A stretch of DNA of 64,000 nt from Roseivirga misakiensis. GTDB taxonomy: Bacteria > Bacteroidota > Bacteroidia > Cytophagales > Cyclobacteriaceae. Below are positions 2,671-17,671 of this stretch, piece after piece. The stretch is from the NCBI RefSeq assembly GCF_001747105.1, contig NZ_MDGQ01000003.1, forward strand, positions 558,001 through 622,000. Reading direction: 5' to 3'. The translations under genes and the position numbers were made by a program. Position 1 is the first letter of the stretch, and every line of letters starts with the position of its first letter. The notes beneath the pieces are model-generated. The model saw nothing but the letters and a program-made list of their open reading frames with translations, ran no database searches and was not told the origin of the DNA.

Positions 2671-2684
2671 TTCAATCTTTGGAT

Positions 2685-3290
2685 TTATTCGTAGTTCGTT
2701 CTAGTCATTATACTTCTACCTAAAGTTACCTCATCGGCAAATTCAAGCTCTCCGCCTATCGGTATACCTCTTGCTATAGAAGTGATTTTCACACCAAATT
2801 CCTTCAACTTCTTGGTCAGATAAAAGGCAGTAGTGTCTCCCTCCATGGTAGGGCTAAGCGCCAAAATTACCTCTTCTATTTTTGGCTCACTATCTTTTAT
2901 CCGATTAATTAAAGTGTCAATATTCAACTCATCTGGGCCTATTCCCTCTATGGGTGAAATCACACCACCAAGCACATGATACAAGCCACGGTACTGTGCG
3001 GTATTTTCAATCGCAATTACATCGGGGGTATCTTGAACCACACAGATTGTATTCAACTCTCTTTTTATGGTTTTACAAGTACAGTCAGAAGTATCGGAAA
3101 TAATATGGCAAGTACTGCAATATTGTGTTTGCTCGCGCAGCCTAGTTAGCGATTCCGATAAATTTTGGGTGGTTTGCTGATCCTGTTTTAGTAAATGAAG
3201 CACCAACCGTAGGGCCGTCTTCTTACCAATTCCCGGCAGCTTAGATATCTCCTCTATTGCGTTATCGACAAGTTTTGGAGGAAAATTCAA
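2685..3290 (-). CDS. recR: Recombination mediator protein RecR
   Basis: A 201-residue RecR, the DNA-clamp partner of RecO and RecF that helps load RecA at gapped DNA. Seen in order are a helix-hairpin-helix (LPGIGKKTALRLV, about 18-30), a zinc site with C58, C61, C70 and C72, and a Toprim domain from about residue 81 with the family block YRGLYHVLGG near residue 100. The second half of the zinc site is CxC instead of the usual CxxC. That is a small departure that may alter but need not abolish zinc binding. Full length. It lies 29 bases downstream of clpS in the same direction. Confidence 0.95.
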   Translation of the reverse strand: MNFPPKLVDNAIEEISKLPGIGKKTALRLVLHLLKQDQQTTQNLSESLTRLREQTQYCSTCHIISDTSDCTCKTIKRELNTICVVQDTPDVIAIENTAQYRGLYHVLGGVISPIEGIGPDELNIDTLINRIKDSEPKIEEVILALSPTMEGDTTAFYLTKKLKEFGVKITSIARGIPIGGELEFADEVTLGRSIMTRTNYE

Positions 3291-3319
3291 CGTCTTAAGT
3301 AATGATTATAGGGAGAGAA

Positions 3320-3604
3320 TTACATGACTGTGGCAGTAATGCCAGCGTCTAATATGTTTTCGCACATTGGTCTTAACTCAGCGAAAGAACCAGTTTTCAC
3401 GGTGCACTTCCCTTTATAGTGAATCAGGAGTGTGCATTGTTCTGCCTGTTCTGCTGAATGCTTGCAAACCTTAATAAGGATGTTCGATACGTGCTCAAAT
3501 GTATTCACATCATCATTGAAAACAACTAAATCACAAAGATCGTCTTCAACGGCAACCTCTAATAATTCCACTGCCTCCTCTTCTTGATAATTCATTTGCA
3601 TCAT
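3320..3604 (-). CDS. clpS: ATP-dependent Clp protease adaptor ClpS
   Basis: A 94-residue ClpS. The acidic N-terminal extension (residues 1-25) is the part that is threaded toward ClpA/ClpC. The core begins with VVFNDDVNTFEHV, whose NDD segment forms part of the N-degron pocket, and continues through HYKGKC and the conserved C-terminal helix and strand. ClpS delivers proteins with bulky hydrophobic N-termini to the Clp protease. A second in-frame ATG at codon 3 is possible. The gene is the first of the run clpS-recR-aminotransferase-kinase-cupin and has a plausible promoter directly upstream. Confidence 0.92.
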   Translation of the reverse strand: MMQMNYQEEEAVELLEVAVEDDLCDLVVFNDDVNTFEHVSNILIKVCKHSAEQAEQCTLLIHYKGKCTVKTGSFAELRPMCENILDAGITATVM

Positions 3605-3654: not shown

Positions 3655-4440
3655 CTACTGGTTATTCTTTTCTATATTTTCCATTCGCTGCATTAGAGAT
3701 TTCAATTGCTCCTCAACCGAATGGACTTTAACTTCCATTTTTTGTGGTGAATTAAGTTTTTGACTGAGCTTACTTTTTACATGCCAAAGTTCTAACAAGC
3801 GATCGTCAACTATGGTAATCGGTTTAAAGTTGGTATTATCTGGTATTAAGACGAGCGACTCCTCCGATTCAATTCTACCTACTACAATCAGGTCTTTAGT
3901 AACCGCTAAGAGTACCTCCCCAACAGTTGGTTTCAATTCTGAATTATTATCGAATTTTTCACAAAGTAGATAGTCACCATGGTGAATCCCCTGTTGATCT
4001 ACAACCATGTGATCACCGATCATTTCAAATAGTCTTAATCTATGCTTTGATATATAAGGTAATTCACATTTTGGTAGACCTTCTAAGTAATCTCTTTTCT
4101 GATAATTGACGAGATAATCTAACTGTTGACTTTGAGCGACTAAACTTACCGAACTTGTTACCTTTTGAACAGGAACTCCTTGATGAAGCGCATCTAGCTT
4201 CTGATTGACCAGATTGAAACTATAGAGTTCCTTTACGGTAAGTTCTTTGGTCAATAATACATCGATGGATAAGCCAAAATAATGAGCAATATCTATGACG
4301 GTTTGGATTTTAGGCTCTGACCTACCCTCTTCATAAGCCCCAACACTCGGACGTGCCAAATTGAATAACTCAGCAAATTTAGCCTGAGACAGGTTTCTAA
4401 CGGCTCTTATACGCTTAATATTCTGACCTATGAACGACAT
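3655..4440 (-). CDS. XRE-family regulator with a degenerate S24 (LexA/CI-like) domain
   Basis: A 261-residue protein starting at the ATG MSFIGQNIKRIR. The open frame runs further upstream, but that part lacks domain character. Residues 6-60 form a classic Cro/CI helix-turn-helix (LSQAKFAELFNLARPSVGAYEEGRS). Residues about 140-225 resemble the S24 peptidase fold of LexA/CI repressors. The usual GDSM serine is replaced (MIGDHMV) and the KR dyad is also lost (VVGRIES), so self-cleavage is not expected and the domain probably serves dimerisation or ligand sensing. The C-terminus is a short coiled coil. It is divergent from the pspA operon and is the best candidate for its regulator. Confidence 0.75.
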   Translation of the reverse strand: MSFIGQNIKRIRAVRNLSQAKFAELFNLARPSVGAYEEGRSEPKIQTVIDIAHYFGLSIDVLLTKELTVKELYSFNLVNQKLDALHQGVPVQKVTSSVSLVAQSQQLDYLVNYQKRDYLEGLPKCELPYISKHRLRLFEMIGDHMVVDQQGIHHGDYLLCEKFDNNSELKPTVGEVLLAVTKDLIVVGRIESEESLVLIPDNTNFKPITIVDDRLLELWHVKSKLSQKLNSPQKMEVKVHSVEEQLKSLMQRMENIEKNNQ

Positions 4441-4570
4441 ATAAAAATAATTGCTAATATTTTGAGCATATCTAAAACTTTTTACATCTTTGTATCGTAA
4501 ACATAGAGTAATTAATTCAAAACATAAACGGTCATGATTAAAAATACGCCCCAGCGGCATCAAATCAAAA

Positions 4571-4671: not shown

Positions 4672-5067
4672 ATGAATAATCATTTTCAAAAAGTAAAAAA
4701 CTACATACTCGACCTAGACTTCTCAATTCTCATGGAAGATGAATCTGACGGTCTAATGGTCATCGAAAGCGAAGAAGACGGTATCAAGAATTTGGTACTT
4801 GGCGTGGAAGAACCTTTACTCATTATAGAACAGTCACTCGTCAACTTAGGCGATACGTCCGCGGCCACTTACCTTAATTTGCTTCAGAAAAACAGAGACA
4901 TGGTACATGGTGCATTTGTCGTAGATGAAACGGGTAAACGTGTGATTTTCAGGGATACTTTACAACTAGAAAACTTAGACCTGAATGAATTAGAGGCCTC
5001 TTTTAACTCATTGGCCTTAGTACTGAGCGAACACTCAGACGAATTATTAAAAGTTGCAGAAAAATAA
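4672..5067 (+). CDS. YjfI (DUF2170)/YbjN-like acidic protein
   Basis: A 131-residue acidic, soluble protein without a signal peptide or membrane helix. Its size, the alternating strands in the first 60 residues (DGLMVIESEEDGIKNLVLG) and its position directly before pspA resemble YjfI (DUF2170) of the enterobacterial yjfIJKL cluster. The fold also recalls YbjN/type-III chaperone-like proteins. The assignment rests on size, context and general pattern and is not certain. It is the first gene of the plus-strand arm; its stop lies 10 bases before the chosen pspA start. A chaperone or adaptor role for PspA or its partners is an inference. Confidence 0.6.
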   Translation: MNNHFQKVKNYILDLDFSILMEDESDGLMVIESEEDGIKNLVLGVEEPLLIIEQSLVNLGDTSAATYLNLLQKNRDMVHGAFVVDETGKRVIFRDTLQLENLDLNELEASFNSLALVLSEHSDELLKVAEK

Positions 5068-5077
5068 AAACATAGAT

Positions 5078-5785
5078 ATGAACGTATTCAAAAGAATTTT
5101 CAAGATGGGTCAGGCAGAGACGCACTCGGCCCTAGATAAATTAGAAAACCCAATCAAATTAACTGAGCAGGGCATCAGAGATTTAAAAAAGGACCTTGAC
5201 TCAAGTTTAAAAGCACTGGCTGAGGTAAAAGCCATGGCTATTCGATCTAGAAACGATCTACAGACTTCTAAGAACAAAGCCAAAGATTACGAAAACAAGG
5301 CGATGCTTCTTTTGAAGAAAGCTCAAAATGGCGACTTAGAAGCTGCTGACGCAGATAGATTAGCTAGCGAAGCTTTAGTAAAGAAAGAGGAAGAATTAGA
5401 GCAGGCTAAAAGGTCTCAAGAAGAGGTAAACAGATTCGAAGGAAACATTGGTCAACTAGATCAGAATGTTAAGAAAATTCGATCTACGATCAGTAAGTAC
5501 GAAAATGAGTTAAAAACTTTGAAAGCTCGTGTAAAAGTTAGCGAAGCCACTAAAAAGTTGAATAAGCAAATGGCTCAAATCGATTCTTCAAGCACTGTTA
5601 CTATGCTGGAGCGCATGAAGGATAAAGTTGCTCAAGATGAAGCTTTAGCTGAGTCTTACGGTGAAATAGCTAACGAAAGCAAGTCGATTGATGACGAAAT
5701 CGATAAAGCATTAGAGGGAGGCGAAAACCAAGCTAAAGCTTCAGACAGCTTGGCTGCCCTAAAAAACAAACTAGGAATGGAGTAA
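5078..5785 (+). CDS. pspA: PspA/IM30-family membrane-remodelling protein
   Basis: A 235-residue, highly charged alpha-helical protein. The start chosen is ATG 5078 (MNVFKRIFKMGQAETHSAL), because an amphipathic N-terminal helix is the family hallmark; the longer frame from 5054 would overlap the upstream gene. Residues about 25-190 are almost continuous coiled coil, and the C-terminal third is a further helical segment (ALAESYGEIANES). PspA proteins are ESCRT-III-like and form rods or rings on stressed inner membranes, preserving the proton-motive force. The neighbours (YjfI-like before; DUF4178, DUF350 and SpeE after) match the YjfJ branch better than the classical pspABC operon. Confidence 0.9.
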   Translation: MNVFKRIFKMGQAETHSALDKLENPIKLTEQGIRDLKKDLDSSLKALAEVKAMAIRSRNDLQTSKNKAKDYENKAMLLLKKAQNGDLEAADADRLASEALVKKEEELEQAKRSQEEVNRFEGNIGQLDQNVKKIRSTISKYENELKTLKARVKVSEATKKLNKQMAQIDSSSTVTMLERMKDKVAQDEALAESYGEIANESKSIDDEIDKALEGGENQAKASDSLAALKNKLGME

Positions 5786-5800
5786 TCCATTCTTAGTTTT
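5771..5800 (+). terminator. Stem-loop over the pspA stop codon, followed by TTTT
   Basis: An 11-bp stem (5771-5781 with 5786-5796, one G-U pair) closes a GTAA tetraloop that contains the first bases of the region around the pspA stop codon TAA at 5783-5785. It is followed by TTTTCC. It resembles a partial intrinsic terminator or a 3'-end stabiliser that would lower expression of the downstream genes relative to yjfI-pspA. Confidence 0.5.
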
Positions 5801-5826
5801 CCTTCAACCAAAAACAATCCTCGGTC

Positions 5827-6039
5827 ATGATTGCTCAAAAGTCAAATAACTCAAAGTATATAAGTCTCACAATTGGTATTGTAGTCGCCCTTCTATCGAT
5901 CTGGCAGGTCACAGGAAGGAGAATAGAAATGAGAAGCCGGCTAAAGACGATTGCCTCAAGGGCTGTTCTGGTGCCAGTACTTTATGGCAGCAGTATGACG
6001 GCGCTATCTATACAAATTAATCAGTATTTAAATCAGTGA
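5827..6039 (+). CDS. Small membrane protein of unknown function
   Basis: A 70-residue protein with one clear hydrophobic segment near residues 12-28 (ISLTIGIVVALLSIWQV), then a basic stretch and a second mildly hydrophobic segment (AVLVPVLYGSSMTALSI). I do not recognise a family. It lies 41 bases after pspA and 1 base before the next small gene, all in one direction. It is therefore likely to be a membrane component of the same system. Small membrane partners are common for PspA, but no homology to PspB or PspC is visible. Confidence 0.55.
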   Translation: MIAQKSNNSKYISLTIGIVVALLSIWQVTGRRIEMRSRLKTIASRAVLVPVLYGSSMTALSIQINQYLNQ

Positions 6040-6040
6040 G

Positions 6041-6205
6041 ATGAGAAGTTTAAGTTATATGGGAAATTTAATTCGGGCCATTCTGGCTATAATAGTTATT
6101 GTCTTTGTTTTTGGATTCCTTTTTAGTTTCCTATTCAAAATCGGCATCATATTATTAATTGGTTTGGGAATCCTCTATCTAATCAGAAAAGTATTTATCG
6201 ACTAA
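6041..6205 (+). CDS. Very small two-helix membrane protein
   Basis: A 54-residue reading frame from ATG 6041 to TAA 6203-6205. It is almost wholly hydrophobic: one helix at about residues 11-31 and a second at about 33-48, ending in RKVFID. It is packed between two other genes, 1 base after the previous stop and 1 base before the next ATG, and such tight spacing supports its being real. No family is recognised. The likely role is a membrane anchor or partner for PspA or the DUF4178 protein (inference). Confidence 0.6.
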   Translation: MRSLSYMGNLIRAILAIIVIVFVFGFLFSFLFKIGIILLIGLGILYLIRKVFID

Positions 6206-6206
6206 C

Positions 6207-6749
6207 ATGGGAGTATTTGATTTTCTAAAAAAGAAGCAAGAACCAAAATACGATGTCACTAACTTAAGTGTGAATGACCTAGATGAAGGGTTTGTGTTTG
6301 ACTACAACTTAAAAAGTTGGGTTGTGAAAGAGGTCTACCAATACGATTGGGGGAAAAATGTATTCACTAAAGAATACAAGATAGACTCTGGTGACGAGGT
6401 GGCTTACTTAAGCGTTTCTGACAATGGTGACTTAGACATTAGCGTCACCAAATCCATTAAAATTCAAGAACTTGGTGATGGAATTCGAGAAGAGATTCGT
6501 AAGAAAGAGGCTCCTGCCGAACTGATGTATCAAGGAACAAAGTACTTTTTAGACGAAGATTCTGCTGGCTATTTTAATGATGTTACGGCTAAGAGCTCCG
6601 AATGGGAAGAACTTATAAGTTATGACTACTTAAATGAGGAAGAAACTTTGTGCATTTCTATTACCCAATGGGACGAACGCAACTTTGAAGCTTCTGCAGG
6701 TAATGTCATTCAACATTTCGAGATATCGAATATCACCCCAGATGCATAG
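6207..6749 (+). CDS. DUF4178-domain protein
   Basis: A 180-residue soluble protein starting MGVFDFLKKK. The pattern (VNDLDEGFVFDYNLKSWVV, then a Trp-rich beta segment, then SYDYLNEEETLCISITQWDE) matches the DUF4178 family: beta-rich domains usually encoded with DUF350 membrane proteins and spermidine synthases. No catalytic residues are evident. The start lies one base after the tiny membrane protein. DUF4178/DUF2491-type proteins take the YjfK position in PspA-linked clusters. A role in binding a polyamine or a membrane-stress ligand is conjecture. Confidence 0.75.
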   Translation: MGVFDFLKKKQEPKYDVTNLSVNDLDEGFVFDYNLKSWVVKEVYQYDWGKNVFTKEYKIDSGDEVAYLSVSDNGDLDISVTKSIKIQELGDGIREEIRKKEAPAELMYQGTKYFLDEDSAGYFNDVTAKSSEWEELISYDYLNEEETLCISITQWDERNFEASAGNVIQHFEISNITPDA

Positions 6750-6825
6750 GGTTGTCTGACAGGTTTTCCCTAACTTGTCTATTTATACCTGAATCTGCAG
6801 CACAAATAAGCAAGAATTCAAATTT

Positions 6826-7587
6826 ATGAAATACATAAAAACAGCTTCTCTTCTTTTACTACTCGTCTTTGTAACGAGCTGTGGTGGAAGAGAAAAATTC
6901 GTTAAAGACCCCTTAGACGATATTATCCGAGACATGCCGACTGACAGAGTTTTCTCTGTTGAATTATATGACATGAATGTTGAGGGTAACTTCTTCGAAG
7001 ACTACTTTCATCAATATCGTATAATTGAAGAAAAAACTCCGGGCCAACCAGAAGAGAGAGTTACGGAGTGGATGCAAGTTTCTGAAAACCAATTCAAGAA
7101 ACATGTCGATGACATGGGCATGGAACTCGCTTCTAGAGGGGAAGATGGAAAACTTGTTAAGGATGTTAGCCCTCCAGGTTATAATAACTATGTAGGCAAC
7201 GAAAAATACGGGCAATGGGTCCAAAGAGATGGGGGTAGTTTCTGGGAATTTTATGGAAAATATGCTTTCATGTCTTCGATGTTTAGAATGTTTACTTACC
7301 CTGTAAACAGGTCTTACTACAACGATTATAGAGGTAATTATTACGGAAGAGGTCGCTCTTATTATGGCCCAAGAACCACTACTGGCGGATCCTATTATGG
7401 TACCAACAGTAATTATAATAGAACTTCTAAACCAAATTCTACTTGGAGCAGTAACCGCTCTAATTTCAAAAATCGAGTAAACAGCAGAACTTCAAGGTCC
7501 AGTACTTCGAGTTCGAGAACATCAAGATCATCGTCCAGATACGGCGGATCAAGCTCTCGTTCTAGAGGCGGAGGGTTCGGAAAATAA
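6826..7587 (+). CDS. Lipoprotein with a basic Ser/Arg/Gly-rich tail
   Basis: A 253-residue protein with a lipoprotein signal peptide (LLLVFVTSC, lipidated C19). Residues about 20-160 form an ordered domain of unknown family containing several Trp/Tyr (WVQRDGGSFWEFYGKYAF). From about residue 165 the sequence turns low-complexity: first Tyr/Arg/Asn/Gly-rich, then Ser/Arg repeats ending in GGGFGK, strongly basic. The lipoprotein is expected in the outer or inner membrane leaflet facing the periplasm. The basic tail could bind anionic lipid, LPS or peptidoglycan. It sits between the DUF4178 and DUF350 genes and is probably part of the same unit. Confidence 0.65.
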   Translation: MKYIKTASLLLLLVFVTSCGGREKFVKDPLDDIIRDMPTDRVFSVELYDMNVEGNFFEDYFHQYRIIEEKTPGQPEERVTEWMQVSENQFKKHVDDMGMELASRGEDGKLVKDVSPPGYNNYVGNEKYGQWVQRDGGSFWEFYGKYAFMSSMFRMFTYPVNRSYYNDYRGNYYGRGRSYYGPRTTTGGSYYGTNSNYNRTSKPNSTWSSNRSNFKNRVNSRTSRSSTSSSRTSRSSSRYGGSSSRSRGGGFGK

Positions 7588-7609
7588 GCTTCAATCTACA
7601 CTGACTATT

Positions 7610-8470
7610 ATGGAATACCTTGACGGAATAATCTATTCAATTTTATACTTAGCTGCTTCTTTTATTCTCTTTTACATTGGCAAAGTAGCTTATCAACTCT
7701 TTCACCCAAAAATCAAAGTTGCGGAGGAACTTGTTGTACGAGACAATTTTGCTTTTTCGGTAGCCTATGTCGGCTACTATATCGGCCTAGTGATTGCACT
7801 GGGCGCTGCTGTTTATGGAGAATCCAATGGATGGCAGTTGGATTTAATGGACATGGGTGTTTACGGTCTTTTGACCATCGTTCTTTTGAACCTATCACTG
7901 CTTATTAACGACAAACTAATCCTCAACAAGTTCAGTGTAAAAAAGGAAATTCTTGAAGATCGGAATGTAGGTACAGGCGTGATTGAAGGAGCCAATGCTG
8001 TAGCTACAGGTTTAATCGTATTAGGGGCTATTCATGGTGAAGGCCATGGTTTTGGAGGACCGATCGTGACAGGGGTGCTGTACTGGTTATTAGGTCAAGT
8101 ATTACTTTATATCACAGCGAAAGTATACAGCGCCATTACTCCATATGATGTACACGATGAAATTGAAAAAGATAATGTAGCAGTAGGCATAGCAATGGCG
8201 GGTGCGATGGTCGCTATCGCGAATTTGATTCGGTTTGCCCTCATGCATGATTTTGAAAGTTGGTTGATAACAGTAGAAGACGTAGCAATTGACGTTGCCA
8301 TCGGACTTGCTTTCTTACCATTGGCACGTTTACTTACTGATAAGATCCTGCTTCCAGGCAGAAAGTTAACAGACGAAATCGTGAACCAAGAAAACCCAAA
8401 TAAAGGTGCGGCGCTAGTTGAAGCATTCGCCTATATCGGTGGCTCTGTGCTAATTACTTGGGCCCTATAA
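7610..8470 (+). CDS. DUF350 integral membrane protein (YjfL-like), duplicated domain
   Basis: A 286-residue membrane protein made of two DUF350 units, each with about four hydrophobic helices (roughly residues 5-135 and 145-285). Paired family-like features recur in both halves: a short helix before a charged loop and a Gly-rich helix (FSVAYVGYYIGLVIALG in the first, VAVGIAMAGAMVAIANLI in the second), plus D/E-rich turns such as LINDKLIL and LLTDKILL. E. coli YjfL is a single-unit relative. DUF350 proteins are of unknown function and co-occur with PspA, DUF4178 and polyamine synthases. A role in small-ion or polyamine movement is conjecture. Confidence 0.8.
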   Translation: MEYLDGIIYSILYLAASFILFYIGKVAYQLFHPKIKVAEELVVRDNFAFSVAYVGYYIGLVIALGAAVYGESNGWQLDLMDMGVYGLLTIVLLNLSLLINDKLILNKFSVKKEILEDRNVGTGVIEGANAVATGLIVLGAIHGEGHGFGGPIVTGVLYWLLGQVLLYITAKVYSAITPYDVHDEIEKDNVAVGIAMAGAMVAIANLIRFALMHDFESWLITVEDVAIDVAIGLAFLPLARLLTDKILLPGRKLTDEIVNQENPNKGAALVEAFAYIGGSVLITWAL

Positions 8471-8490
8471 TTTTCTTGATAATCCTCACC

Positions 8491-8506
8491 AGAGGAGAAC
8501 TCCTTT
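8491..8506 (+). promoter_or_regulatory. Shine-Dalgarno-like AGGAG inside a short dyad before speE
   Basis: AGGAG (8493-8497) is followed after two bases by its reverse complement CTCCT (8500-8504), and flanking bases extend the dyad to 8491-8506. ATG follows at 8509. Shine-Dalgarno sites are uncommon in this phylum. Here the site could be masked by local pairing, though a two-base loop is strained. Confidence 0.3.
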
Positions 8507-8508
8507 AA

Positions 8509-10047
8509 ATGTCGAAATCGAACATACTTAAGTTAGCCCTATTTGCGACAGGACTTTCTGGTATAGTAGCCGAATACGTCCTTTCGACACTTGCCACTTA
8601 CTTTTTAGGTGATTCTGTTTTTCAATGGACAATGATCGTGTCCATTATGCTTTTTTCTATGGGATTAGGAAGTAGGATAAGCCGCTATATATCGGGCGAC
8701 CTGCTTCAAAGATTTATCTATATAGAATTTACTTTATCCCTTTTAACAGCATTCGTTTCGGTCATCACCTACCTCTCTTCAGCTTACTATGGAGACAATA
8801 CGGTGATAATCTATGGTATGAGTATTCTTGTTGGCCTACTAATCGGCATGGAAATTCCCATTGTTATGCGGCTAAACGATGAGCACGAGGAACTGAAGAT
8901 AAACGTATCCTCAGTTATGGAGAAAGACTACTATGGCAGTTTGCTTGGCGGCGTCTTTTTCGCCTTTATCGGCCTACCCTATTTAGGCCTTACTTATACC
9001 CCGTTTATCCTCGGGAGTATCAACTTTTTAGTCGCTTGTCTTTTAATTTATGTCCTTTGGAGGTCCATAGATACCAAGTACCGATCTAGACTTATCGGAC
9101 TCATAGCTGGTGTTATATTGATTATTAGTGCCGGCGCCATTTGGGCAAAAAGTATCATTGACTTTGGGGAAGAACTCAGGTATAAGGATAGGGTTGTTTT
9201 TTCAGAACAGACGAAGTATCAGCGCATTGTTATTACTCAATCCAAAGAAGCACATTGGCTTTTCATCAATGGCAATCAGCAATTGAGCTCGATAGATGAG
9301 ATTATGTATCACGAGCCACTAGTACACCCGGTCATGGGCTTACTGAAAAACCCAAAGCACATTTTAGTTATGGGTGGCGGCGATGGTGGTGCTGTTCGAG
9401 AAATCGTAAAATACCCTTCTGTTGAAAAAATTACTTTGGTGGACTTAGATCCCCGAATGACAGAACTAGGGCAATCTCAAGACTGGTTGGTGAGCATGAA
9501 CCAAAACTCGTTGAACGACCCAAAAGTTGAAATCATAAATGCCGATGGTTTCACTTGGCTCGAGGCCAACGATCAGTATTATGACGCGGTAATCATAGAT
9601 TTACCAGACCCTAAAACAGTTGAATTAGGAAGGCTTTATTCTTATGAATTTTATCAGCTATGCCATAATCACCTGCGGCCCAATGGCGTAATTACAACCC
9701 AAGCTGGCTCTCCATACTACGCAGCCAGAGCGTTTAACTGCATAGATCAGACCATGACCGAAGCTGGATTTACTACAGTACCGCTTCACAATCAGGTAGT
9801 GACACTCGGAGAATGGGGATGGGTACTTGGCGTAAAAGATGGAGAAAAGAGCGCGGTAAAACGGGCACTTCAAAGTCTTAGTTTTGAAGGAATTGCCACT
9901 GAGTGGCTAAACACTGAGGCAATGACCTTAATGACCTCTTTTGGGAAGAAGGTATTCCCAGATGATGATAAACCGGTGGAAACCAATCGAATTCACAATC
10001 CAGTTTTGTACAAGTACTACTTAAAAGGGAAGTGGGACCTTTATTAA
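8509..10047 (+). CDS. speE: Membrane-anchored polyamine aminopropyltransferase (spermidine synthase)
   Basis: A 512-residue protein. Residues about 7-215 hold six or seven membrane helices; residues about 225-480 are the spermidine-synthase methyltransferase-like fold. Active-site blocks are intact: GGGDGG at 289-294 for decarboxylated S-adenosylmethionine, VDLD at 311-314 for its ribose, and DLPDP at 364-368 with the catalytic Asp, then QAGSPYYA. The predicted reaction is transfer of an aminopropyl group from decarboxylated S-adenosylmethionine to putrescine or another amine, at the inner membrane. It is last in the plus arm, 38 bases after DUF350. The C-terminus NPVLYKYYLKG is shared with the paralogue at 12735. 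Confidence 0.88.
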   Translation: MSKSNILKLALFATGLSGIVAEYVLSTLATYFLGDSVFQWTMIVSIMLFSMGLGSRISRYISGDLLQRFIYIEFTLSLLTAFVSVITYLSSAYYGDNTVIIYGMSILVGLLIGMEIPIVMRLNDEHEELKINVSSVMEKDYYGSLLGGVFFAFIGLPYLGLTYTPFILGSINFLVACLLIYVLWRSIDTKYRSRLIGLIAGVILIISAGAIWAKSIIDFGEELRYKDRVVFSEQTKYQRIVITQSKEAHWLFINGNQQLSSIDEIMYHEPLVHPVMGLLKNPKHILVMGGGDGGAVREIVKYPSVEKITLVDLDPRMTELGQSQDWLVSMNQNSLNDPKVEIINADGFTWLEANDQYYDAVIIDLPDPKTVELGRLYSYEFYQLCHNHLRPNGVITTQAGSPYYAARAFNCIDQTMTEAGFTTVPLHNQVVTLGEWGWVLGVKDGEKSAVKRALQSLSFEGIATEWLNTEAMTLMTSFGKKVFPDDDKPVETNRIHNPVLYKYYLKGKWDLY

Positions 10048-10079
10048 TCTGAGCCTTTTATAGCCCCCTTTTTGGCCAA

Positions 10080-11114
10080 TTAGATATCAAAACCACCTAC
10101 GTCGATATCGCCAAAGTCAAACCAACTACTATCTGCACCAGCATCGGTTACAGCGTCAAACCCACCAACATCACCTAAGCTATCGGCTCCAATGGAATCG
10201 AAATCCATATCGGCATTGAACAAATCCGCATCGCCAGCATCAATTCCTTCGGCTCCGATTGATCCCAAAACATCGGCGTTATCCCCTACCAAAGTCACAT
10301 CGCTCACATGCATATGATGATCGTGAAGTAGGGTCGACCATAGAAAGCTATAGAGTAAAATATCACCAAAACCATGGTAGCCATCAAAAACAGGATCGTA
10401 TTCCCGTGTCGGGTTTTTCCTTCTTCCTTTAAAGACAGGCTTTCTATCCTTGGCTTTTGGCATAACCACACGTTTGTCAATTTGAATCTTTACGTCATCG
10501 ATCTTCATGTGCTTTCTGACCCTTAAACCAAGGTCATTGATGAATGTCTCAAAAGCTAAGTGTTGCTCTTGTACAAATTGATCGAGCACATCTTGTCCAG
10601 AAAAACGCGTTTTCATTTTTGCCTTTACGCTTTCCTCATCTTCTCCCTCTCGCTTTCTAAATTCTTTCATCAAAGCATTTACTTTGATCTCAATTGGGTA
10701 CACCCCCACTGCATGTATTCGATTTATATCAATTTCAATCAGGTAGACAAAGTTGTTGTCCTCATGCTCCAACACCATGTGTAGCGTTTTGAAATGGTGA
10801 GACATGGCATCATTGACCGTGAGTTCATAGGCATCTAGAGCATCCTTTAAGTCGTCTTTCTTACCTTCTTTATCATAGTAAATATCTATGTCATCGTGAG
10901 AGAGCCGAATGATATTATTGATATCGATTTCCCAAAAAAGCCGATTCATTTGTTGTAGCACTGAAACCGTGGTAAAAGTCTCATGCTCTACCTTTTTTGA
11001 GGTAGCTCCAGCGGTAACATAGTGTAGAAACTTCCTGAACATTTCATCAGGCTCAACTCGCTCAATTTTCGTGAGCTGGGATGGGTCAATTGATATTCGG
11101 GCACTGAAATACAT
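10080..11114 (-). CDS. Unknown protein with a very acidic low-complexity tail
   Basis: A 344-residue protein that I do not recognise. Residues 1-215 look like a mixed alpha/beta domain (MYFSARISIDPSQL at the start). A basic segment follows near 215-240 (KAKDRKPVFKGRRKN), then a hydrophobic patch (GFGDILLYSFLWSTLLHDHHMH). The last 70 or so residues contain no Lys or Arg and are built from Asp, Gly, Ala and Phe (for example GDIDVGGFDI). No signal peptide is seen. It ends the minus-strand arm behind the amine oxidase and converges on speE with a 32-base gap. An anionic tail could bind cationic polyamines or the basic lipoprotein tail (inference). Confidence 0.6.
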   Translation of the reverse strand: MYFSARISIDPSQLTKIERVEPDEMFRKFLHYVTAGATSKKVEHETFTTVSVLQQMNRLFWEIDINNIIRLSHDDIDIYYDKEGKKDDLKDALDAYELTVNDAMSHHFKTLHMVLEHEDNNFVYLIEIDINRIHAVGVYPIEIKVNALMKEFRKREGEDEESVKAKMKTRFSGQDVLDQFVQEQHLAFETFINDLGLRVRKHMKIDDVKIQIDKRVVMPKAKDRKPVFKGRRKNPTREYDPVFDGYHGFGDILLYSFLWSTLLHDHHMHVSDVTLVGDNADVLGSIGAEGIDAGDADLFNADMDFDSIGADSLGDVGGFDAVTDAGADSSWFDFGDIDVGGFDI

Positions 11115-11207
11115 ACTTCAAAATTTTGGTTTAAAAGCATCTTCAAGATAAGCATTAGGATGTTCTCTTTGGGTATTTTCATCAGCGAAAAAATCCGCTT
11201 AACGAAA

Positions 11208-12719
11208 CTATTCCCCTAGTAGATTTGCTGCTTGAATTCCTGAGTCCAGCGCCTCAAAAAGTAGTGGAAGCCTGGCATTATCCACTCCGGCAAAAGTCAT
11301 GTTTTTATGAAGACGATTCTTATTCTTATCGGAGAAAAGATAGCCTGGCTTTGGAATAGGCATGGCATGACCCATTACCTTGATATTTACATGCTCAATT
11401 AAACCCTCAAGATCTTGATCAAAGTATTGATTCAAGTAACCCAGTGTCTTTGCGACGATCACTTCACGGTTAGCCTCTACATTTTTTAAATCATTTCTTA
11501 CCGATGGGGGCAAACAATAATATGCCGTCAAAACACGGTTACTAGTATCATCGGTCTCTTGCATATCCGAATCCACAAAGCCCATAAAAGTCTCATCTTC
11601 CATCAGCATCTCATTTTGCCAATAACCTTTCTTCTCAAGCGCGTCGGTCAATACAAAATTCAATACCAGCCAAGGTGCATAATCATTGTCTTGAAAGAAT
11701 TCATATTGATCTGGCATGATGTACTTAAGTGCATGCTTTTGGCCTGCGTAAACCACGTTTTTGGAGGTAATGGTTTTCACAAGACTTTTTTCAACATCAA
11801 TTACCTCAGTTTGAAAACCATCGGCCACTTTTCGGATAGATTTCACCAATTGATTCGTTTGTAAGCGCTCTTTAGGGAGTTTACCAGCCATTTTTTTGAT
11901 GAAATAACCATTACCGCTTGGCGGTGAAAAAAGGTCTACAACTTGGGTTTCATATGGCCTGCAAGTAAAATAGTGAACTCCAGCAAGTGCCGAAACCTGC
12001 TCTGTTGTTCCTCCCCAATCATCGAGCATATGATAATCCAGTCCACGTTTAAAATCAGGTGACAAGCTCATTTGAGTACTTAAAAAGTCAAAAAAGCTCA
12101 TGTCGTTTAAAGATTGGTGCTTTGCCTCAATATTTGTGGTTGGCATCACCATTTGCCCGTAGAAAGGCCTAAGAATTTGTTGAAATTTCTCTTTCTCCTC
12201 ACCATCCTTTAAAACATCTCCTCTGAACTTACCTGCTTCAAAGCAAATGTTTTTTCTAGCATTCGAGATGATATACTGTTTGTCCCTAAAACTCCAACTG
12301 TCCTTCCAAGATTGGAATTCAATAATTTTCAATTCTTCCAGAAGTGACAAGACATCTTGCCCATAATTAGATGGGTATGCTAAATCATAGTGTGCTCCTT
12401 GAGCAAATGTGGTATTTCCTACTTCGGAAAAAGAAGAGGTGCCACCAAGCCTTTCTGAAAGCTCGAAGAGCATAAAGTCTTGATCTTTTAGCGTAAATGC
12501 TGCCCCTAAACCTGCGATTCCACCACCCACTATCACGGTTTCTACATTGATGGTGTTGGTTTTTTGAAAGTCCTGACTTTTGAAAATCAAATGCCCAGTG
12601 TGTATATCTGTGTCAACGGAAATCGGAAAACCATTTTTGTCGTCACCCCAATCACATGATTGCAGAATAATCGGCAAAGTAGCCAGTGACGATAGTTTGA
12701 TAAACTTCCTTCTTTTCAT
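11208..12719 (-). CDS. Exported FAD-dependent amine oxidase-like flavoprotein
   Basis: A 503-residue flavoprotein. The N-terminus has a twin-arginine-like start (MKRRKFIKLSSLA) and ends in LQSC, so it may be exported folded and lipidated at C22; the Gln at -2 of the lipobox is unusual. The FAD Rossmann motif is VIVGGGIAGLGAA (63-74), followed by the ribose Glu (FELSERLGG). The C-terminal FAD-contact block is FAGVDNARLPLLFEALDSG. This layout is the monoamine/polyamine oxidase superfamily. Placement between two genes of a spermidine-synthase locus suggests a polyamine or modified-amine substrate. It lies 15 bases behind the second spermidine synthase. Confidence 0.75.
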   Translation of the reverse strand: MKRRKFIKLSSLATLPIILQSCDWGDDKNGFPISVDTDIHTGHLIFKSQDFQKTNTINVETVIVGGGIAGLGAAFTLKDQDFMLFELSERLGGTSSFSEVGNTTFAQGAHYDLAYPSNYGQDVLSLLEELKIIEFQSWKDSWSFRDKQYIISNARKNICFEAGKFRGDVLKDGEEKEKFQQILRPFYGQMVMPTTNIEAKHQSLNDMSFFDFLSTQMSLSPDFKRGLDYHMLDDWGGTTEQVSALAGVHYFTCRPYETQVVDLFSPPSGNGYFIKKMAGKLPKERLQTNQLVKSIRKVADGFQTEVIDVEKSLVKTITSKNVVYAGQKHALKYIMPDQYEFFQDNDYAPWLVLNFVLTDALEKKGYWQNEMLMEDETFMGFVDSDMQETDDTSNRVLTAYYCLPPSVRNDLKNVEANREVIVAKTLGYLNQYFDQDLEGLIEHVNIKVMGHAMPIPKPGYLFSDKNKNRLHKNMTFAGVDNARLPLLFEALDSGIQAANLLGE

Positions 12720-12734
12720 AGGTTCAGTCCCTCG

Positions 12735-14183
12735 CTATTTGAAGCCATAATTTCCATTTAAATAATATTTGTACAAGACGGGGTCTTTAATTGTATTGAT
12801 TTTTAAAGCTTCAGTTTTTCTTGAAGGCTTACCAAAACTCAACATCATTTGCATCGCCTCTTGATTTAACCATTTGGTAGGGTATTGCTCAAATTTACTT
12901 TTCGCCAATCGGCTTTTCATATCTGATTTACCCATGTTAGCTGATCCAATAGCCCAAGACCATTCACCCAGTGTCAAGATTTGATTGTGGTAGGAAACAA
13001 CATTCAAGTTTGCTGCTTCCATTGTCTTTAATACAATATCGTAAGCCTCGGTGGCGAAGTATGGACTGCCTGACTGCGTCACCACCAAGCCTTTAATGGT
13101 CAAATTTCTACTAACTAACTCGTAAAATTCCTGAGTGAAAAACTGGTTCCTTTCTATATCGATCGGATCCGCCACATCTAAAAAAATGATATCATACTTT
13201 CGGTTACTCGAATTCAAATAATCAAAAATATCACTGGCCACGACCTGTGCTTTTTTGTCGGCTGGGTATTCTCGGTTATATCTCAAAAACAACTCCTCCT
13301 CCGACGCCAATTCCAAGAGTTTCCCATCGATCGGTACTTGATCAATATGCTCCAAGCCCGCTTTAAAAAGCTCATTAACCAACATGCCATTCTCCCCACC
13401 TACTACTAAAACTTCATTTACATCTGAAACCAAGTTCAACACTGGAAATGCAAAAGGTTCATAAAAAAGCCAAGCGTCTATTGAGCTAAACTGGTTCACA
13501 CCATCGGCATAAAACCAATGATCTCCTTTCCATTCCGTAATATCCACCCGCTGAATATCAGTGGTATAGGAGTAAACGACCTTGTCATGAAAATTTGACT
13601 GGGTTTCAAAGAATTTGGGAGGATCAAAAAAGTTTGAACCAATTAAAAATGTTATCGCACCATGAGCAGTAACTACAGCAATAGACCTTTTTACTTCCCA
13701 ATAATGAGCTATTAAACCTGTTGCAAAAAAGAGCACCAACATTTCTGAAAAGCTATGTTCTTTAGAAAAGAAGCTCAGTAAAAACCCGAAAAGAAAAAAC
13801 GGCACCAAGACTAAAAGCGTCCACTTGGGTGCTTTAGGTACAATAGGATATCGGAACAAAGCATAAGCTGAAACACTCAACAATAGAAGTTCTAAGTAGA
13901 GTATAAATTGAGGCGAATAAAGTGTGGAATAAAGCCAGTAATCGAGTTTAAGCCAAGCTAATGGCAATATTATCAGTGCGATGGCCATGTACCGAAGTCC
14001 AGACCATTTTTGAAGAAACTTTCTGGTCAAGAATATACCACTGAAGAAAATGAACAAATAGCCAAAAATATCGATCAGCGGTTTCTCATAAAAGTAATTT
14101 GCAAGTAACACGGGATAGCCGAGGCAATAGCCAACAAGGCTCCATCCAGCTATCATCACGTTGCCCTTGAAGACATTACTCAT
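12735..14183 (-). CDS. Membrane-anchored spermidine synthase-like paralogue with altered active site
   Basis: The start chosen is ATG 14183, which overlaps the ion-channel stop by 8 bases (GATGAGTAA), giving 482 residues; a longer frame reaches 14228. Residues about 8-185 contain six or seven membrane helices, then a SpeE-like domain. Compared with the intact paralogue at 8509, GGGDGG is GGENGM (262-267), the VDLD ribose-binding block is VPIDG, and DLPDP is DVADP. QSGSPYFA and the C-terminal NPVLYKYYL-type end (DPVLYKYYLNG) are kept. It may use a different cosubstrate, or act as a non-catalytic partner of the active enzyme. Confidence 0.8.
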   Translation of the reverse strand: MSNVFKGNVMIAGWSLVGYCLGYPVLLANYFYEKPLIDIFGYLFIFFSGIFLTRKFLQKWSGLRYMAIALIILPLAWLKLDYWLYSTLYSPQFILYLELLLLSVSAYALFRYPIVPKAPKWTLLVLVPFFLFGFLLSFFSKEHSFSEMLVLFFATGLIAHYWEVKRSIAVVTAHGAITFLIGSNFFDPPKFFETQSNFHDKVVYSYTTDIQRVDITEWKGDHWFYADGVNQFSSIDAWLFYEPFAFPVLNLVSDVNEVLVVGGENGMLVNELFKAGLEHIDQVPIDGKLLELASEEELFLRYNREYPADKKAQVVASDIFDYLNSSNRKYDIIFLDVADPIDIERNQFFTQEFYELVSRNLTIKGLVVTQSGSPYFATEAYDIVLKTMEAANLNVVSYHNQILTLGEWSWAIGSANMGKSDMKSRLAKSKFEQYPTKWLNQEAMQMMLSFGKPSRKTEALKINTIKDPVLYKYYLNGNYGFK

Positions 14184-14961
14184 CCTGACCCTTATTCTTT
14201 TTATTTCTGTTTCTAAGCTCCGATTCAAATCCAGCAGCCACTATACCTGCGGGTAACGCAAAAAGACCGACTCCCATAATGGCTATAGCCGCACCAAGGA
14301 GTTTGCCTAGGGCCGTTACTGGATAAACGTCTCCATAACCAACGGTAGTTAGTGTAGCTACACCCCACCACATGGTTTCTGGAATGCTCTGAAAACCTGG
14401 TTTATCAGGCTCATATTCAATGTAATACATCAGTGTTGAAGCAAATATCAACATGATAATGAGCAAAGTCAGCGAAACGATTAACTCCTCTCTTCGCTTT
14501 CTAATCACGTCTGAAATCAGTGTCAAAGCTTGAGAGTATCGGCCTAACTTAAAGATTCTGACTAACCTAGCCAATCTTAAAATTCTAACAATCCGTCCAT
14601 CTGAATGATTTAAAACAAACGGTAGGTAGAAAGGCAGAATAGCTAAAAGATCGATAATAGCTGAGGCCGAGAACATGTATTTGATCCGTCCAAAAACAGG
14701 ATGCTTATATTTTTCTAATACTGTACAAGCCCAAAGCCTGATTACATATTCTATGCTAAATACAACAACTGAAAAGACCTCGAAGTAATGAAAGTAAAGG
14801 CTATACTGATCATGAATAGAATCTACCGTTTCGATAATAACGGCAGCAACATTGAGTAGAATCAATGTCGTAATCAACATGTCAAACCGTTTACTTAAGG
14901 TGTCTGCCTCTTCTGCTCGATCGAGTGTTTTTAGAATTTTACGTTTCGTTGCCTTACTCAT
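14176..14961 (-). CDS. Voltage-gated-type potassium channel (six membrane helices)
   Basis: A 261-residue channel of the Kv/KvAP type. S1-S3 lie between about residues 28 and 115. S4 carries regularly spaced arginines (GRIVRILRLARLVRIFKLGR, 122-141). The pore loop has the potassium selectivity filter TTVGYGD (205-211), followed by S6 with a hinge-like Gly (MGVGLFALPAGI). A short charged C-terminus ends in GQDE and has no CNB or RCK domain. It is the first gene of the minus-strand arm and is translationally coupled to the SpeE-like paralogue. The context suggests that channel activity, polyamine level and membrane state are linked; polyamines are known pore blockers of several cation channels. 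Confidence 0.88.
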   Translation of the reverse strand: MSKATKRKILKTLDRAEEADTLSKRFDMLITTLILLNVAAVIIETVDSIHDQYSLYFHYFEVFSVVVFSIEYVIRLWACTVLEKYKHPVFGRIKYMFSASAIIDLLAILPFYLPFVLNHSDGRIVRILRLARLVRIFKLGRYSQALTLISDVIRKRREELIVSLTLLIIMLIFASTLMYYIEYEPDKPGFQSIPETMWWGVATLTTVGYGDVYPVTALGKLLGAAIAIMGVGLFALPAGIVAAGFESELRNRNKKNKGQDE

Positions 14962-15043: not shown

Positions 15044-16477
15044 ATGAGCCCTGGTTTGGTAATCGGTCTAATAGCCGGATATTTTGCACTATTGGTAGTT
15101 ATAGCACGCGTAACATCGAAAGGTGCGACGTCGCAGACATTCTTCACTGCGAATAAGCAATCACCATGGTTTTTGGTAGCCTTCGGTATGATTGGTGCAT
15201 CACTTTCTGGTGTAACTTTCATTTCTGTACCGGGAGAAGTCGGCAACAGCTTCTTTTCTTACTTTCAGGTCGTATTGGGCTATTTATTAGGCTATTTCGT
15301 AATAGCCAAAGTATTACTCCCACTATACTACAAGCTAAATCTAGTTTCCATTTACGGTTATTTAGAACAACGATTCGGGTTTTGGTCTTACAAAACTGGA
15401 TCAGCATTCTTTCTACTGTCTAGAACAATTCAAGCTTCTTTTCGGCTTTTCTTGGTAGCGATAGTCCTGCAGACAGCTCTTTTCGATGCTTTCGGGGTTC
15501 CGTTTTGGGTATCTGTGGCTGTGACGATTTTGTTGATCTGGATATACACTTTCCAAGGCGGTATTAAAACGATCGTTTGGACGGATACTTTACAGACCTC
15601 CTTCCTATTAATCGCCGTGATCACCACGATTTACATCATCACCAAAGAACTTGGTTGGGGGTTTGGAGAAACCATTGCTGAAATTCAATCCAGTGAAATG
15701 TCCAAGATTTTTTATCTGGATTGGGGTAACGCTCGTTTCTTCCCTAAGCAATTTATTTCTGGTGCACTGATCGCCATCGTTATGACTGGCTTAGATCAGG
15801 ATATGATGCAAAAGAACTTGACTTGTAAGTCACTGAAAGATGCACAAAAGAACATTTTCTGGTTTAGCGTGGTGCTAATTATCGCGAATATCTTATTCCT
15901 AAGTTTAGGTGCCTTACTTTACTTGTATGCAGAACAAAATGGCATTTCTATCCCAGATCGCACGGATGGATTGTACCCATTATTGGCCTTAAATCACCTC
16001 GGTACTTTTGCTGGCATTGTATTTTTACTTGGCATAATTGCAGCTGCCTATTCAAGTGCAGATTCTGCTTTAACCGCCCTAACAACCGCCTTTTGTGTGG
16101 ACTTTCTAAACTTTGAGCAACGTGAGGAAAGCGAGAAGAAAAAGGTAAGACTAAAGGTTCATATCGCCTTTTCAGTAGCTTTATTCATTATCATTCTAAT
16201 ATTTAATGGCATAAATGATGATAGCGTCATCAACTCTATTTTCCGAGCAGCAGGATATACTTATGGCCCCTTACTTGGTCTATTTTCTTTTGGTTTATTA
16301 ACCAAAAGGGTCGTTCGCGATAAATATGTTTTAGCCGTTTGCATAGCTGCACCCATCCTATCTTACCTTATTGATATGAACACAGATGGGTGGCTTGGAT
16401 TCTTCGTACTCGCCTTAAATGGGGCACTAACTTTCCTTGGATTGCTAGCAATTTCCAGAACAGGAAAAGAGGCTTAA
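15044..16477 (+). CDS. Sodium:solute symporter (SSS family)
   Basis: A 477-residue membrane protein with about 13 hydrophobic helices. Family landmarks are GASLSGVTFISVPGEVG near residue 46, SIYGYLEQRFG near residue 105, and the TM8 region AAAYSSADSALTALTT (about 330-345), which carries the Ser/Ser sodium-site residues. It imports an organic solute with Na+; the solute (sugar, amino acid or sialic acid class) cannot be told by reading. It is divergent from the ion-channel gene with 82 bases between. Its stop lies one base before the stop of terC on the other strand, so no terminator fits between them. Confidence 0.85.
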   Translation: MSPGLVIGLIAGYFALLVVIARVTSKGATSQTFFTANKQSPWFLVAFGMIGASLSGVTFISVPGEVGNSFFSYFQVVLGYLLGYFVIAKVLLPLYYKLNLVSIYGYLEQRFGFWSYKTGSAFFLLSRTIQASFRLFLVAIVLQTALFDAFGVPFWVSVAVTILLIWIYTFQGGIKTIVWTDTLQTSFLLIAVITTIYIITKELGWGFGETIAEIQSSEMSKIFYLDWGNARFFPKQFISGALIAIVMTGLDQDMMQKNLTCKSLKDAQKNIFWFSVVLIIANILFLSLGALLYLYAEQNGISIPDRTDGLYPLLALNHLGTFAGIVFLLGIIAAAYSSADSALTALTTAFCVDFLNFEQREESEKKKVRLKVHIAFSVALFIIILIFNGINDDSVINSIFRAAGYTYGPLLGLFSFGLLTKRVVRDKYVLAVCIAAPILSYLIDMNTDGWLGFFVLALNGALTFLGLLAISRTGKEA

Positions 16478-16478
16478 C

Positions 16479-17216: not shown

Positions 17217-17252
17217 TTAAGTTTAAAAAGAATTGGTAGTGTAAGTTAGGAA

Positions 17253-17260
17253 CAAATTTA
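17253..17260 (-). promoter_or_regulatory. Possible -7 element before terC
   Basis: TAAATTTG on the minus strand fits TAnnTTTG and lies 36 bases before the terC start. No TTG is found at the -33 distance, which falls inside the end of the preceding gene, so this is a weak call. Confidence 0.25.
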
Positions 17261-17266
17261 AGGGAT

Positions 17267-17605: not shown

Positions 17606-17620
17606 ATTCTAAGCTAATAA

Positions 17621-17649
17621 AAAAGTCCCAACCAGTGGCTGGGACTTTT
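17621..17649 (-). terminator. Intrinsic terminator behind the NSS transporter
   Basis: AAAAGTCCCA (17621-17630) pairs exactly with TGGGACTTTT (17640-17649) across a 9-base loop. It lies just behind the transporter stop on the minus strand and before the ATL start. Confidence 0.85.
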
Positions 17650-17671
17650 AGTCTTTTACGATGCGTTGAGA

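What the first reader, a model, noticed from the sequence alone, without database searches (positions are those of the whole stretch)
4672..14961. Two-armed PspA-polyamine-ion channel locus
Twelve genes in two converging arms join a YjfI-like protein, PspA, two tiny membrane proteins, DUF4178, a basic-tailed lipoprotein, double DUF350, two membrane-anchored spermidine synthase-like proteins, an exported FAD amine oxidase, an acidic-tailed protein and a voltage-gated-type K+ channel. The E. coli yjfIJKL cluster links PspA with DUF350 and, through yjfC, a glutathionylspermidine-synthase-like enzyme, so the theme is known in outline. This Bacteroidota version, with an amine maker, an amine oxidiser and a channel, would form a complete sense-and-respond circuit for membrane stress: polyamine made at the membrane, bound by charged tails, blocking or gating the channel, and removed by the oxidase. 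That circuit is inference.
Basis: partly seen in the sequence, partly recalled or inferred. Interest (0 to 1): 0.78.

Follow-up and report, generated by a model that had tools for sequence, protein, structure and literature searches.

The report
Bacterial membrane-stress locus with polyamine enzymes
A compact block of genes joins a known membrane-repair protein to membrane-bound polyamine-type enzymes, an exported amine oxidase and a potassium channel, next to its own likely switch; the theme is known, but this assembly and its altered second enzyme are new and testable.

Summary
The genes are real and where stated. The plus arm (CesT/Tir-like, PspA, small membrane protein, DUF4178, lipoprotein, double DUF350, membrane SpeE1) matches a published PspA operon class (Ravi et al. 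2024). The minus arm (Kv-type K+ channel, second SpeE, exported amine oxidase) is a partner module. A congeneric genome lacks the whole block, with clpS directly beside the SSF transporter gene. In 60 family genomes, all 11 with the oxidase and all 11 with SpeE2 also have SpeE1 (23 of 60); the arms converge side by side in 5 of 11. SpeE2 belongs to a clade that lost the GGGDG aspartate (13 of 13) yet kept the first aspartate of DxxDP (13 of 13), so a second ordinary polyamine maker is unlikely. Relatives fill the channel slot with 6TM Kv-like or RCK channels. The proposed circuit is unproven and fits poorly in part: the basic lipoprotein tail would repel polyamines, and enzyme and oxidase probably face opposite membrane sides. 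Outside the family the linkage loosens. Verdict: real; a new variant of a known kind.

The parts
3655..4440 (-).
   Evidence: Pfam HTH_3 8.6e-11, Peptidase_S24 3.6e-05; divergent neighbour of CesT in 13 of 19 readable relatives; no conserved LexA-type Ser/Lys pair seen by eye (motif recalled)
4451..4481 (+). Conserved operator-like site TTGCTAATATTTTGAGCATATCTAAAACTTT
   Evidence: PWM built from 10 other loci scores it 38.8 bits, next best in the 64-kb window 12.7; one exact core match in the genome
4672..5067 (+). CesT/Tir-like protein (YjfI-like role)
   Evidence: PF22550 5.5e-53
5078..5785 (+). PspA/IM30, the only PF04012 match found in the genome
   Evidence: PF04012 7.3e-39
5827..6039 (+). 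70-aa ORF, doubtful gene
   Evidence: no relative in loci held at the time
6041..6205 (+). 54-aa small membrane protein, conserved
   Evidence: relatives in L044, L046, L047, L050, L054, L055
6207..6749 (+). DUF4178 protein
   Evidence: PF13785 1.5e-19
6826..7587 (+). Lipoprotein with conserved basic C-terminus RSRGGGFGK
   Evidence: alignment of 15, Cys19 and final Lys invariant; last 80 residues 16 K/R, 0 D/E
7610..8470 (+). Double DUF350 (YjfL family), 8 predicted TM segments
   Evidence: PF03994 4.7e-57; hydropathy
8509..10047 (+). SpeE1: membrane-anchored aminopropyltransferase-type protein with intact motifs
   Evidence: NCBIfam PRK03612 562 bits, cut-off 472; motifs kept in 35 of 35 SpeE1 compared
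10080..11114 (-). Acidic-tailed protein, optional member
   Evidence: 4 of 60 family genomes; between the arms in L087
11208..12719 (-). FAD amine-oxidase-like protein with Tat-type signal and lipobox Cys
   Evidence: PF01593 1.5e-08; R3, R4, F6 invariant and C22 at 90% or more in 17; profile matches putrescine oxidase, MAO-A, SpdH and FMS1, mostly over the N-terminal FAD-binding part
12735..14228 (-). SpeE2: membrane-anchored aminopropyltransferase-like protein with altered pocket (GGENG)
   Evidence: PF01564 2.1e-21; residues; model matches SpeE folds
14176..14961 (-). 6TM Kv-type K+ channel, filter TVGYGD
   Evidence: PF00520 4.2e-36; best PDB match KCNQ2 8.8e-32; alignment

Best explanation
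This is a PspA-type envelope-maintenance locus with its own membrane-bound amine chemistry and K+ conductance. Shown: the gene content; the plus arm matches a published CesT/Tir-PspA operon class; in two congeneric genomes the two arms plus regulator are present or absent together; a conserved operator-like site lies between the regulator and the CesT gene. Inferred: the XRE/S24-like regulator binds that site and controls itself and the plus arm. CesT and PspA act on the inner membrane face. SpeE1, anchored by its TM domain, transfers an aminopropyl group from decarboxylated AdoMet (supplied here by the cell's separate SpeD-SpeE fusion) to an acceptor at the membrane, a polyamine or another amine. 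SpeE2 no longer binds decarboxylated AdoMet in the usual way and has a binding or regulatory role, perhaps as partner of SpeE1. The exported oxidase destroys or trims an amine outside. The channel lets K+ move so that membrane potential and charge stay in balance while the membrane is damaged.
For: Ravi et al. 2024 describe the plus-arm gene set and a polyamine/PspA link (passages). Block absent as a whole at the matching place in congeneric G173. Oxidase and SpeE2 found only with SpeE1 in 60 family genomes. Convergent arms in G126, G128, G157, G158 and in MAGs L086, L087. Small AdoMet decarboxylase genes beside the minus arm in L044, L046, L047, L051 (Pfam-confirmed for L047 and L051). Oxidase with a SpeE within 1.1 kb in 25 of 31 named loci that have upstream sequence, and in 8 of 8 order-level genomes with the weaker oxidase type (positions). 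Channel slot filled by 6TM Kv-like channels (7 sequences, window included) or by channels with a TrkA_N domain (5 of 5 tested), which points to K+ flux as the common need. SpeD-SpeE fusion in the genome. Operator-like site.
Against: No expression or biochemical data. In 6 of 11 SpeE2-bearing family genomes the two SpeE genes are not near each other. In G168 the oxidase stands alone. At order level, among 11 close oxidase relatives (L015-L025) SpeE is adjacent in 1 and DUF350 in 4; 9 order-level SpeE1 loci fetched (L072-L080) show no DUF350 nearby and only 3 show any tracked plus-arm partner. No operator-like site at the minus arm. The oxidase's substrate is unknown.
Confidence: 0.5

Rival explanations
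1. One reading: polyamine made at the membrane is held by charged tails, blocks or gates the channel, and is removed by the oxidase.
For: All named parts are present and linked. Spermine acts on the eukaryotic Kir2.2 channel (start of an abstract in a listing).
Against: The basic tail carries 16 positive and no negative charges in its last 80 residues; operator-like site only at the plus arm; SpeE2 pocket altered; acidic-tailed gene in only 4 of 60 family genomes; the channel slot also takes RCK channels, so voltage gating is not the constant feature.
Confidence: 0.1
2. Two separate modules (PspA-SpeE1 operon and oxidase-SpeE2-channel operon) that share a convergent site without acting together.
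For: The SpeE genes lie apart in 6 of 11 family genomes; the oxidase occurs without SpeE2 in G168 and at order level; the operator-like site is confined to the plus arm.
Against: Oxidase and SpeE2 never without SpeE1 in 60 family genomes; in G165 the minus arm stands beside CesT-PspA instead of SpeE1 (L066); in L086 and L087 channel and SpeD sit inside the plus arm; block present or absent as a whole in two congeneric genomes.
Confidence: 0.2
3. SpeE1 and the oxidase modify a membrane lipid, peptide or lipoprotein rather than free polyamines.
For: The SpeEs are TM-anchored, and a SpeD-SpeE fusion elsewhere could already cover free spermidine. Ravi et al. name aminopropylation of other substrates as an option. 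E. coli YgiC and YjfC are reported to have peptide spermidine ligase activity (title in a reference list only).
Against: SpeE1 keeps every checked aminopropyltransferase motif, which is neutral on the acceptor; no acceptor known.
Confidence: 0.2

Closest known systems
CesT/Tir-PspA operon, second major group of Ravi et al. 2024 (PMC11237479; examples AAN56744.1, AAN56746.1, AAN56747.1)
   Same: CesT/Tir-like protein, PspA, DUF4178, lipoprotein, YjfL 8TM DUF350 and membrane-fused SpeE.
   Different: Adds a convergent arm with K+ channel, second SpeE and exported oxidase; has an XRE/S24-like regulator, where the passages mention an RHH factor in some cases.
CesT/Tir-PspA operon, third group of Ravi et al. 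2024 and its variants (E. coli yjfIJKL-yjfC theme)
   Same: Potassium channel, DUF350, and in variants polyamine oxidase and AdoMet decarboxylase.
   Different: No Pfam match to an ATP-grasp ligase, DUF1190 or DUF2491 among the twelve genes; the channel is 6TM Kv-like, not ligand-sensing; no SpeD in the arm here.
Clusters of 7TM-type SpeE and amine oxidase in other phyla (L090-L118)
   Same: Oxidase with a membrane SpeE nearby; half-length DUF350 in 19 of 29 of these loci.
   Different: SpeE with intact GGGDG (24 of 24 with L027-L029), half-length DUF350, no PspA or CesT detected in the stretches held, oxidase 21-29% identical.

Membership tests
Ravi et al. 2024 CesT/Tir-PspA group 2 | CesT/Tir-PspA dyad | tested here: met
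   PF22550 and PF04012, adjacent genes
Ravi et al. 2024 CesT/Tir-PspA group 2 | Spermidine-synthase-like domain fused to N-terminal 7TM domain | tested here: met
   PRK03612 over cut-off; TM-rich N-terminus, but only five segments pass a simple hydropathy threshold, so the number seven is not shown
Ravi et al. 2024 CesT/Tir-PspA group 2 | YjfL 8TM DUF350 and DUF4178 protein | tested here: met
Ravi et al. 2024 CesT/Tir-PspA group 2 | Ctha_1186-domain lipoprotein | tested here: inconclusive
   lipoprotein in the right place with invariant Cys; no match in Pfam or NCBIfam, so the domain name could not be checked
Ravi et al. 2024 CesT/Tir-PspA group 3 | ATP-grasp ligase, DUF1190 and DUF2491 partners | tested here: not met
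   no Pfam match among the twelve genes; the rest of the genome was not searched for them
Ravi et al. 2024 CesT/Tir-PspA group 3 | K+ channel with intracellular ligand sensing | tested here: not met
   6TM channel without TrkA_N match
Aminopropyltransferase (SpeE1) | GGGDG, following acidic residue, DxxDP | tested here: met
   role of the residues recalled
Aminopropyltransferase (SpeE2) | GGGDG aspartate | tested here: not met
   GGENG here; lost in 13 of 13 of its clade
Aminopropyltransferase (SpeE2) | Fold | tested here: met
   PDB sequence match 7.2e-17; Foldseek 1.0e-15 to 1uir
Flavin amine/polyamine oxidase | Amino_oxidase family match | tested here: met
   34.8 bits, cut-off 19.8; profile search
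Flavin amine/polyamine oxidase | Polyamine as substrate | not testable with these tools
   needs assay
Kv-type K+ channel | Ion_trans domain and TVGYGD filter | tested here: met
LexA-type self-cleaving regulator | Ser/Lys cleavage pair in the S24 domain | tested here: inconclusive
   no conserved Ser/Lys pair seen by eye in 10 aligned regulators; motif recalled

The most novel reading that the evidence does not exclude
SpeE2 is a neofunctionalised partner that forms a hetero-oligomer with SpeE1 in the membrane and switches or retargets its aminopropyl transfer, comparable to the inactive 'prozyme' partners of trypanosomatid polyamine enzymes (recalled), so that aminopropyl chemistry, K+ flux and PspA action form one regulated membrane-repair machine.
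Probability: 0.2. Interest if true: 0.75.

Novelty: new variant of a known kind. Interest (0 to 1): 0.5.

Why it matters
Why PspA operons carry polyamine enzymes is open; the passages of Ravi et al. that I saw only propose a role. This locus adds handles for testing: a self-contained block with a natural congeneric null, one likely dedicated regulator with a candidate operator, a second SpeE with a defined pocket change, and a channel slot filled by two channel types. Together they let one ask whether aminopropyl chemistry, K+ conductance and PspA serve one membrane function.

Tried and rejected
Rejected: the acidic gene as a core member (4 of 60), and equally as a pure hitchhiker (it recurs between the arms in L087). 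Held unlikely rather than excluded: SpeE2 as random decay. Against decay, at 19-32% identity to the window protein, 8 of 13 have G[GA][ED]NG (7 of them GG[ED]NG), 13 of 13 keep the first DxxDP aspartate and 12 of 13 the second; for decay, the other five vary at the motif (GGETG, GGEMG, GNNSG, GNENN, GDLNG) and the full DxxDP is kept in 11 of 13 (DxxDL in L046, DxxEA in L066). Not shown: horizontal transfer of the block; its GC content matches the flanks, and gain in G000 versus loss in G173 was not resolved. Led nowhere: a fold for the acidic protein (mean pLDDT 55.9, no Foldseek match at E<=0.001); single-sequence PDB search with the oxidase (0 matches); a blind dyad search (A/T runs on top; TGCT-N9-AGCA in 5 of 11).

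Papers: one search gave one paper (Ravi et al.); one (BacA, PMC10948618); thirty-five for DUF350, one listed, many using the name for something else; two; Ravi et al. and two others that I did not open; one on another topic; thirty-one, one listed. I saw passages only of PMC11237479, PMC10407285 and PMC10948618. Li et al. 2019 and Pederick et al. 2023 were seen only in reference lists.

Limits. The operator seed was chosen by eye from the same 11 sequences, which inflates the shuffle comparison; the score of the window with a matrix from the other 10 is fairer, but the window had been seen when the seed was made, and L068 and L071 match poorly (9 and 8 mismatches of 26). SpeD hits under about 90 bits come from a four-sequence model and some are probably spurious. 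SpeE2 was counted with a SpeE1 query at E<=1e-15, so very diverged copies could be missed. In one search, SpeE fragments under 380 aa were dropped. Of 24 order-level genomes with a close SpeE1, I fetched 10 (L015, L072-L080). L143 gave an ambiguous motif match.
Full report
What is there. Twelve ORFs lie at 4672-14961 as described. Pfam and NCBIfam assign CesT/Tir-like, PspA, DUF4178, double DUF350, two spermidine-synthase-like proteins, amine oxidase and Kv-type channel. The 54-aa membrane protein has relatives in six other loci, the 70-aa one in none of those then held. PspA is the only PF04012 match found in the genome.

Known part. The plus arm matches the second CesT/Tir-PspA operon group of Ravi et al. 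2024 (PMC11237479; I saw only passages found by search): CesT/Tir, PspA, 7TM-SpeE, YjfL 8TM DUF350, lipoprotein, DUF4178. The same passages report a third group with a potassium channel and, in variants, AdoMet decarboxylase and polyamine oxidase, and suggest that PspA systems monitor polyamines or aminopropylation. So the theme is in print. Searches for the combined gene set brought up that paper; of the three others listed, none has a title or abstract start on this subject, and I opened none of them. The BacA paper (PMC10948618, passages) cites the same operon classes.

One block. In the congeneric genome G173 the genes corresponding to window 161-3604 and 15044-19060 are kept at 74-83% identity, and clpS stands directly beside the SSF transporter gene. 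Everything from the regulator to the channel is missing at that place. SpeE1, SpeE2, oxidase, acidic protein and CesT were also not found elsewhere in G173; PspA, DUF350 and the channel were not searched for genome-wide there. GC content does not set the block apart, and two genomes cannot tell gain from loss.

Co-occurrence. Of 60 family genomes, SpeE1 is in 23 and SpeE2 in 11, the oxidase in 11. Every genome with SpeE2 or oxidase has SpeE1 (hypergeometric 3.9e-6 for 11 within 23 of 60, not corrected for kinship). G168 has the oxidase, standing alone, without SpeE2, and G120 SpeE2 without the oxidase. SpeE1 and the minus arm converge in 5 of 11 SpeE2 genomes: G000, G126, G128 (with a 905-aa helicase-like gene between), G157 and G158 (no channel gene found). 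In G165 the minus arm lies beside CesT-PspA and 134 kb from SpeE1. In G133 the SpeE genes are about 86 kb apart, in G127 about 2.7 Mb apart, and in G120, G145 and G164 on different contigs. Of 22 other family SpeE1 loci fetched, 18 have DUF350 adjacent; L058 has other partners, and L065, L067 and L070 have none of the tracked ones.

Outside the family the link loosens. In 118 order genomes, 20 have an oxidase match, own included. Among 11 close relatives (L015-L025), SpeE is adjacent in 1 and DUF350 in 4. The 8 weaker ones (26-28% identity) all have a SpeE within about 0.8 kb (positions). Of 9 other order-level SpeE1 loci (L072-L080), none has DUF350 nearby and 3 have any tracked plus-arm partner. 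Two Flavobacteriales MAGs again have two convergent arms, with channel and SpeD moved into the plus arm; PspA and CesT are seen in L087 only.

Wider oxidase neighbourhoods. Of 34 kept, 3 lack upstream sequence; 25 of the other 31 have a SpeE within 1.1 kb upstream or overlapping, 2 have one about 4.2 kb away, 4 have none. Of the 29 more distant loci L090-L118, 19 carry a half-length DUF350 and 8 an uncharacterised membrane-type protein; one member of that protein family, in L051, has no Pfam match.

Second SpeE. I compared 35 SpeE1, 24 SpeE from the distant oxidase loci and 15 from minus-arm-type positions. All 35 and all 24 keep GGGDG and both DxxDP aspartates; 33 of 35 SpeE1 and 24 of 24 keep the proline. 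Of the 15, 13 form one clade (FastTree support 0.98); all 13 lack the GGGDG aspartate and third glycine, most often as GGENG. The first DxxDP aspartate is kept in 13 of these 13, the second in 12. The two that keep GAGDG (L086, L087) fall with SpeE1. In a scan of 296 phylum genomes, 22 membrane-type loci were checked: 18 GGGDG, 2 GGGEG, 1 ambiguous (L143), and only the window's own GGENG. The AlphaFold model (mean pLDDT 73.6, lower in the N-terminal helices) has seven N-terminal helices and a domain matching solved SpeE structures. That the lost aspartate contacts decarboxylated AdoMet is recalled, not tested.

Regulator and operator. An XRE/S24-like gene lies divergently beside CesT in 13 of 19 readable relatives (absent in L031, L032, L045, L062, L063, L064; L087 unreadable). 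Eleven intergenic regions, window included, match TTGCTAANNTTTTGAGCANNNCTAAAACTTT with 0-9 mismatches of 26, mean 4.3, against 11.8 in shuffles. A matrix from the other 10 gives the window site 38.8 bits against 12.7 for the next best in the window. No upstream region of 11 minus arms (142-200 bases each) exceeds 3.5 bits. Core matches with up to two mismatches in the genome number 7, the site itself included, against 7 for the control pattern, so only the exact one stands out.

Other parts. The oxidase has an invariant RRxF and a lipobox Cys in 90% or more of 17 relatives, so Tat export as a lipoprotein is likely; its profile matches putrescine oxidase, MAO-A, spermidine dehydrogenase and FMS1, mostly over the FAD-binding part. 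The channel filter TVGYGD is in all 10 sequences aligned; 7 (window included) are 6TM Kv-like. The five other channels tested carry Ion_trans_2 plus TrkA_N, that is, an RCK layout. The lipoprotein ends in a conserved basic RSRGGGFGK. Local SpeD genes stand beside the minus arm in four relatives but not in the window; the genome has one SpeD match, a SpeD-SpeE fusion elsewhere.

Judgement. The linkage claim is upheld within the family, the circuit is not. I take the locus as a new variant of the CesT/Tir-PspA polyamine operons, with a probably neofunctionalised second SpeE and a likely dedicated regulator as the new elements. The organism was not identified.

Noticed in passing
L044:13732-14850, L051:9123-10226, L020:8249-9304, L086:8929-10008: A 340-400-aa protein that looks multi-TM with repeated His by eye stands beside the oxidase in many loci but not in the window; the copy from L051 and that from L020 have no Pfam match.
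   Followed up: partly
L135:7942-8385 and L087:10503-11000: A protein of about 150 aa precedes the acidic-tailed gene in two relatives; three of four relatives of the acidic protein end in Cys-rich SCSSC repeats.
   Followed up: no
L044:9476-12193: A 905-aa helicase-like gene (AAA_11, AAA_12) sits between the two arms in G128.
   Followed up: no
L046:3389-5379: A sigma-factor-like gene (by eye) and another Amino_oxidase-family gene lie upstream of the minus arm in G158, where no channel gene was found.
   Followed up: no
L071:6857-9643 and L138:3492-6316: Flotillin/band-7-like and YqiJ-like genes (assigned by eye) follow CesT-PspA in two relatives, as in another group of Ravi et al.
   Followed up: no
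L086:17736-18704: Two similar proteins of about 150 aa (by eye) beside SpeD in a Flavobacteriales MAG, where PspA and CesT are not found in the stretch held.
   Followed up: no
window 16479-17216: TerC-family gene beside the block; it is also in G173, so it belongs to the flank.
   Followed up: yes
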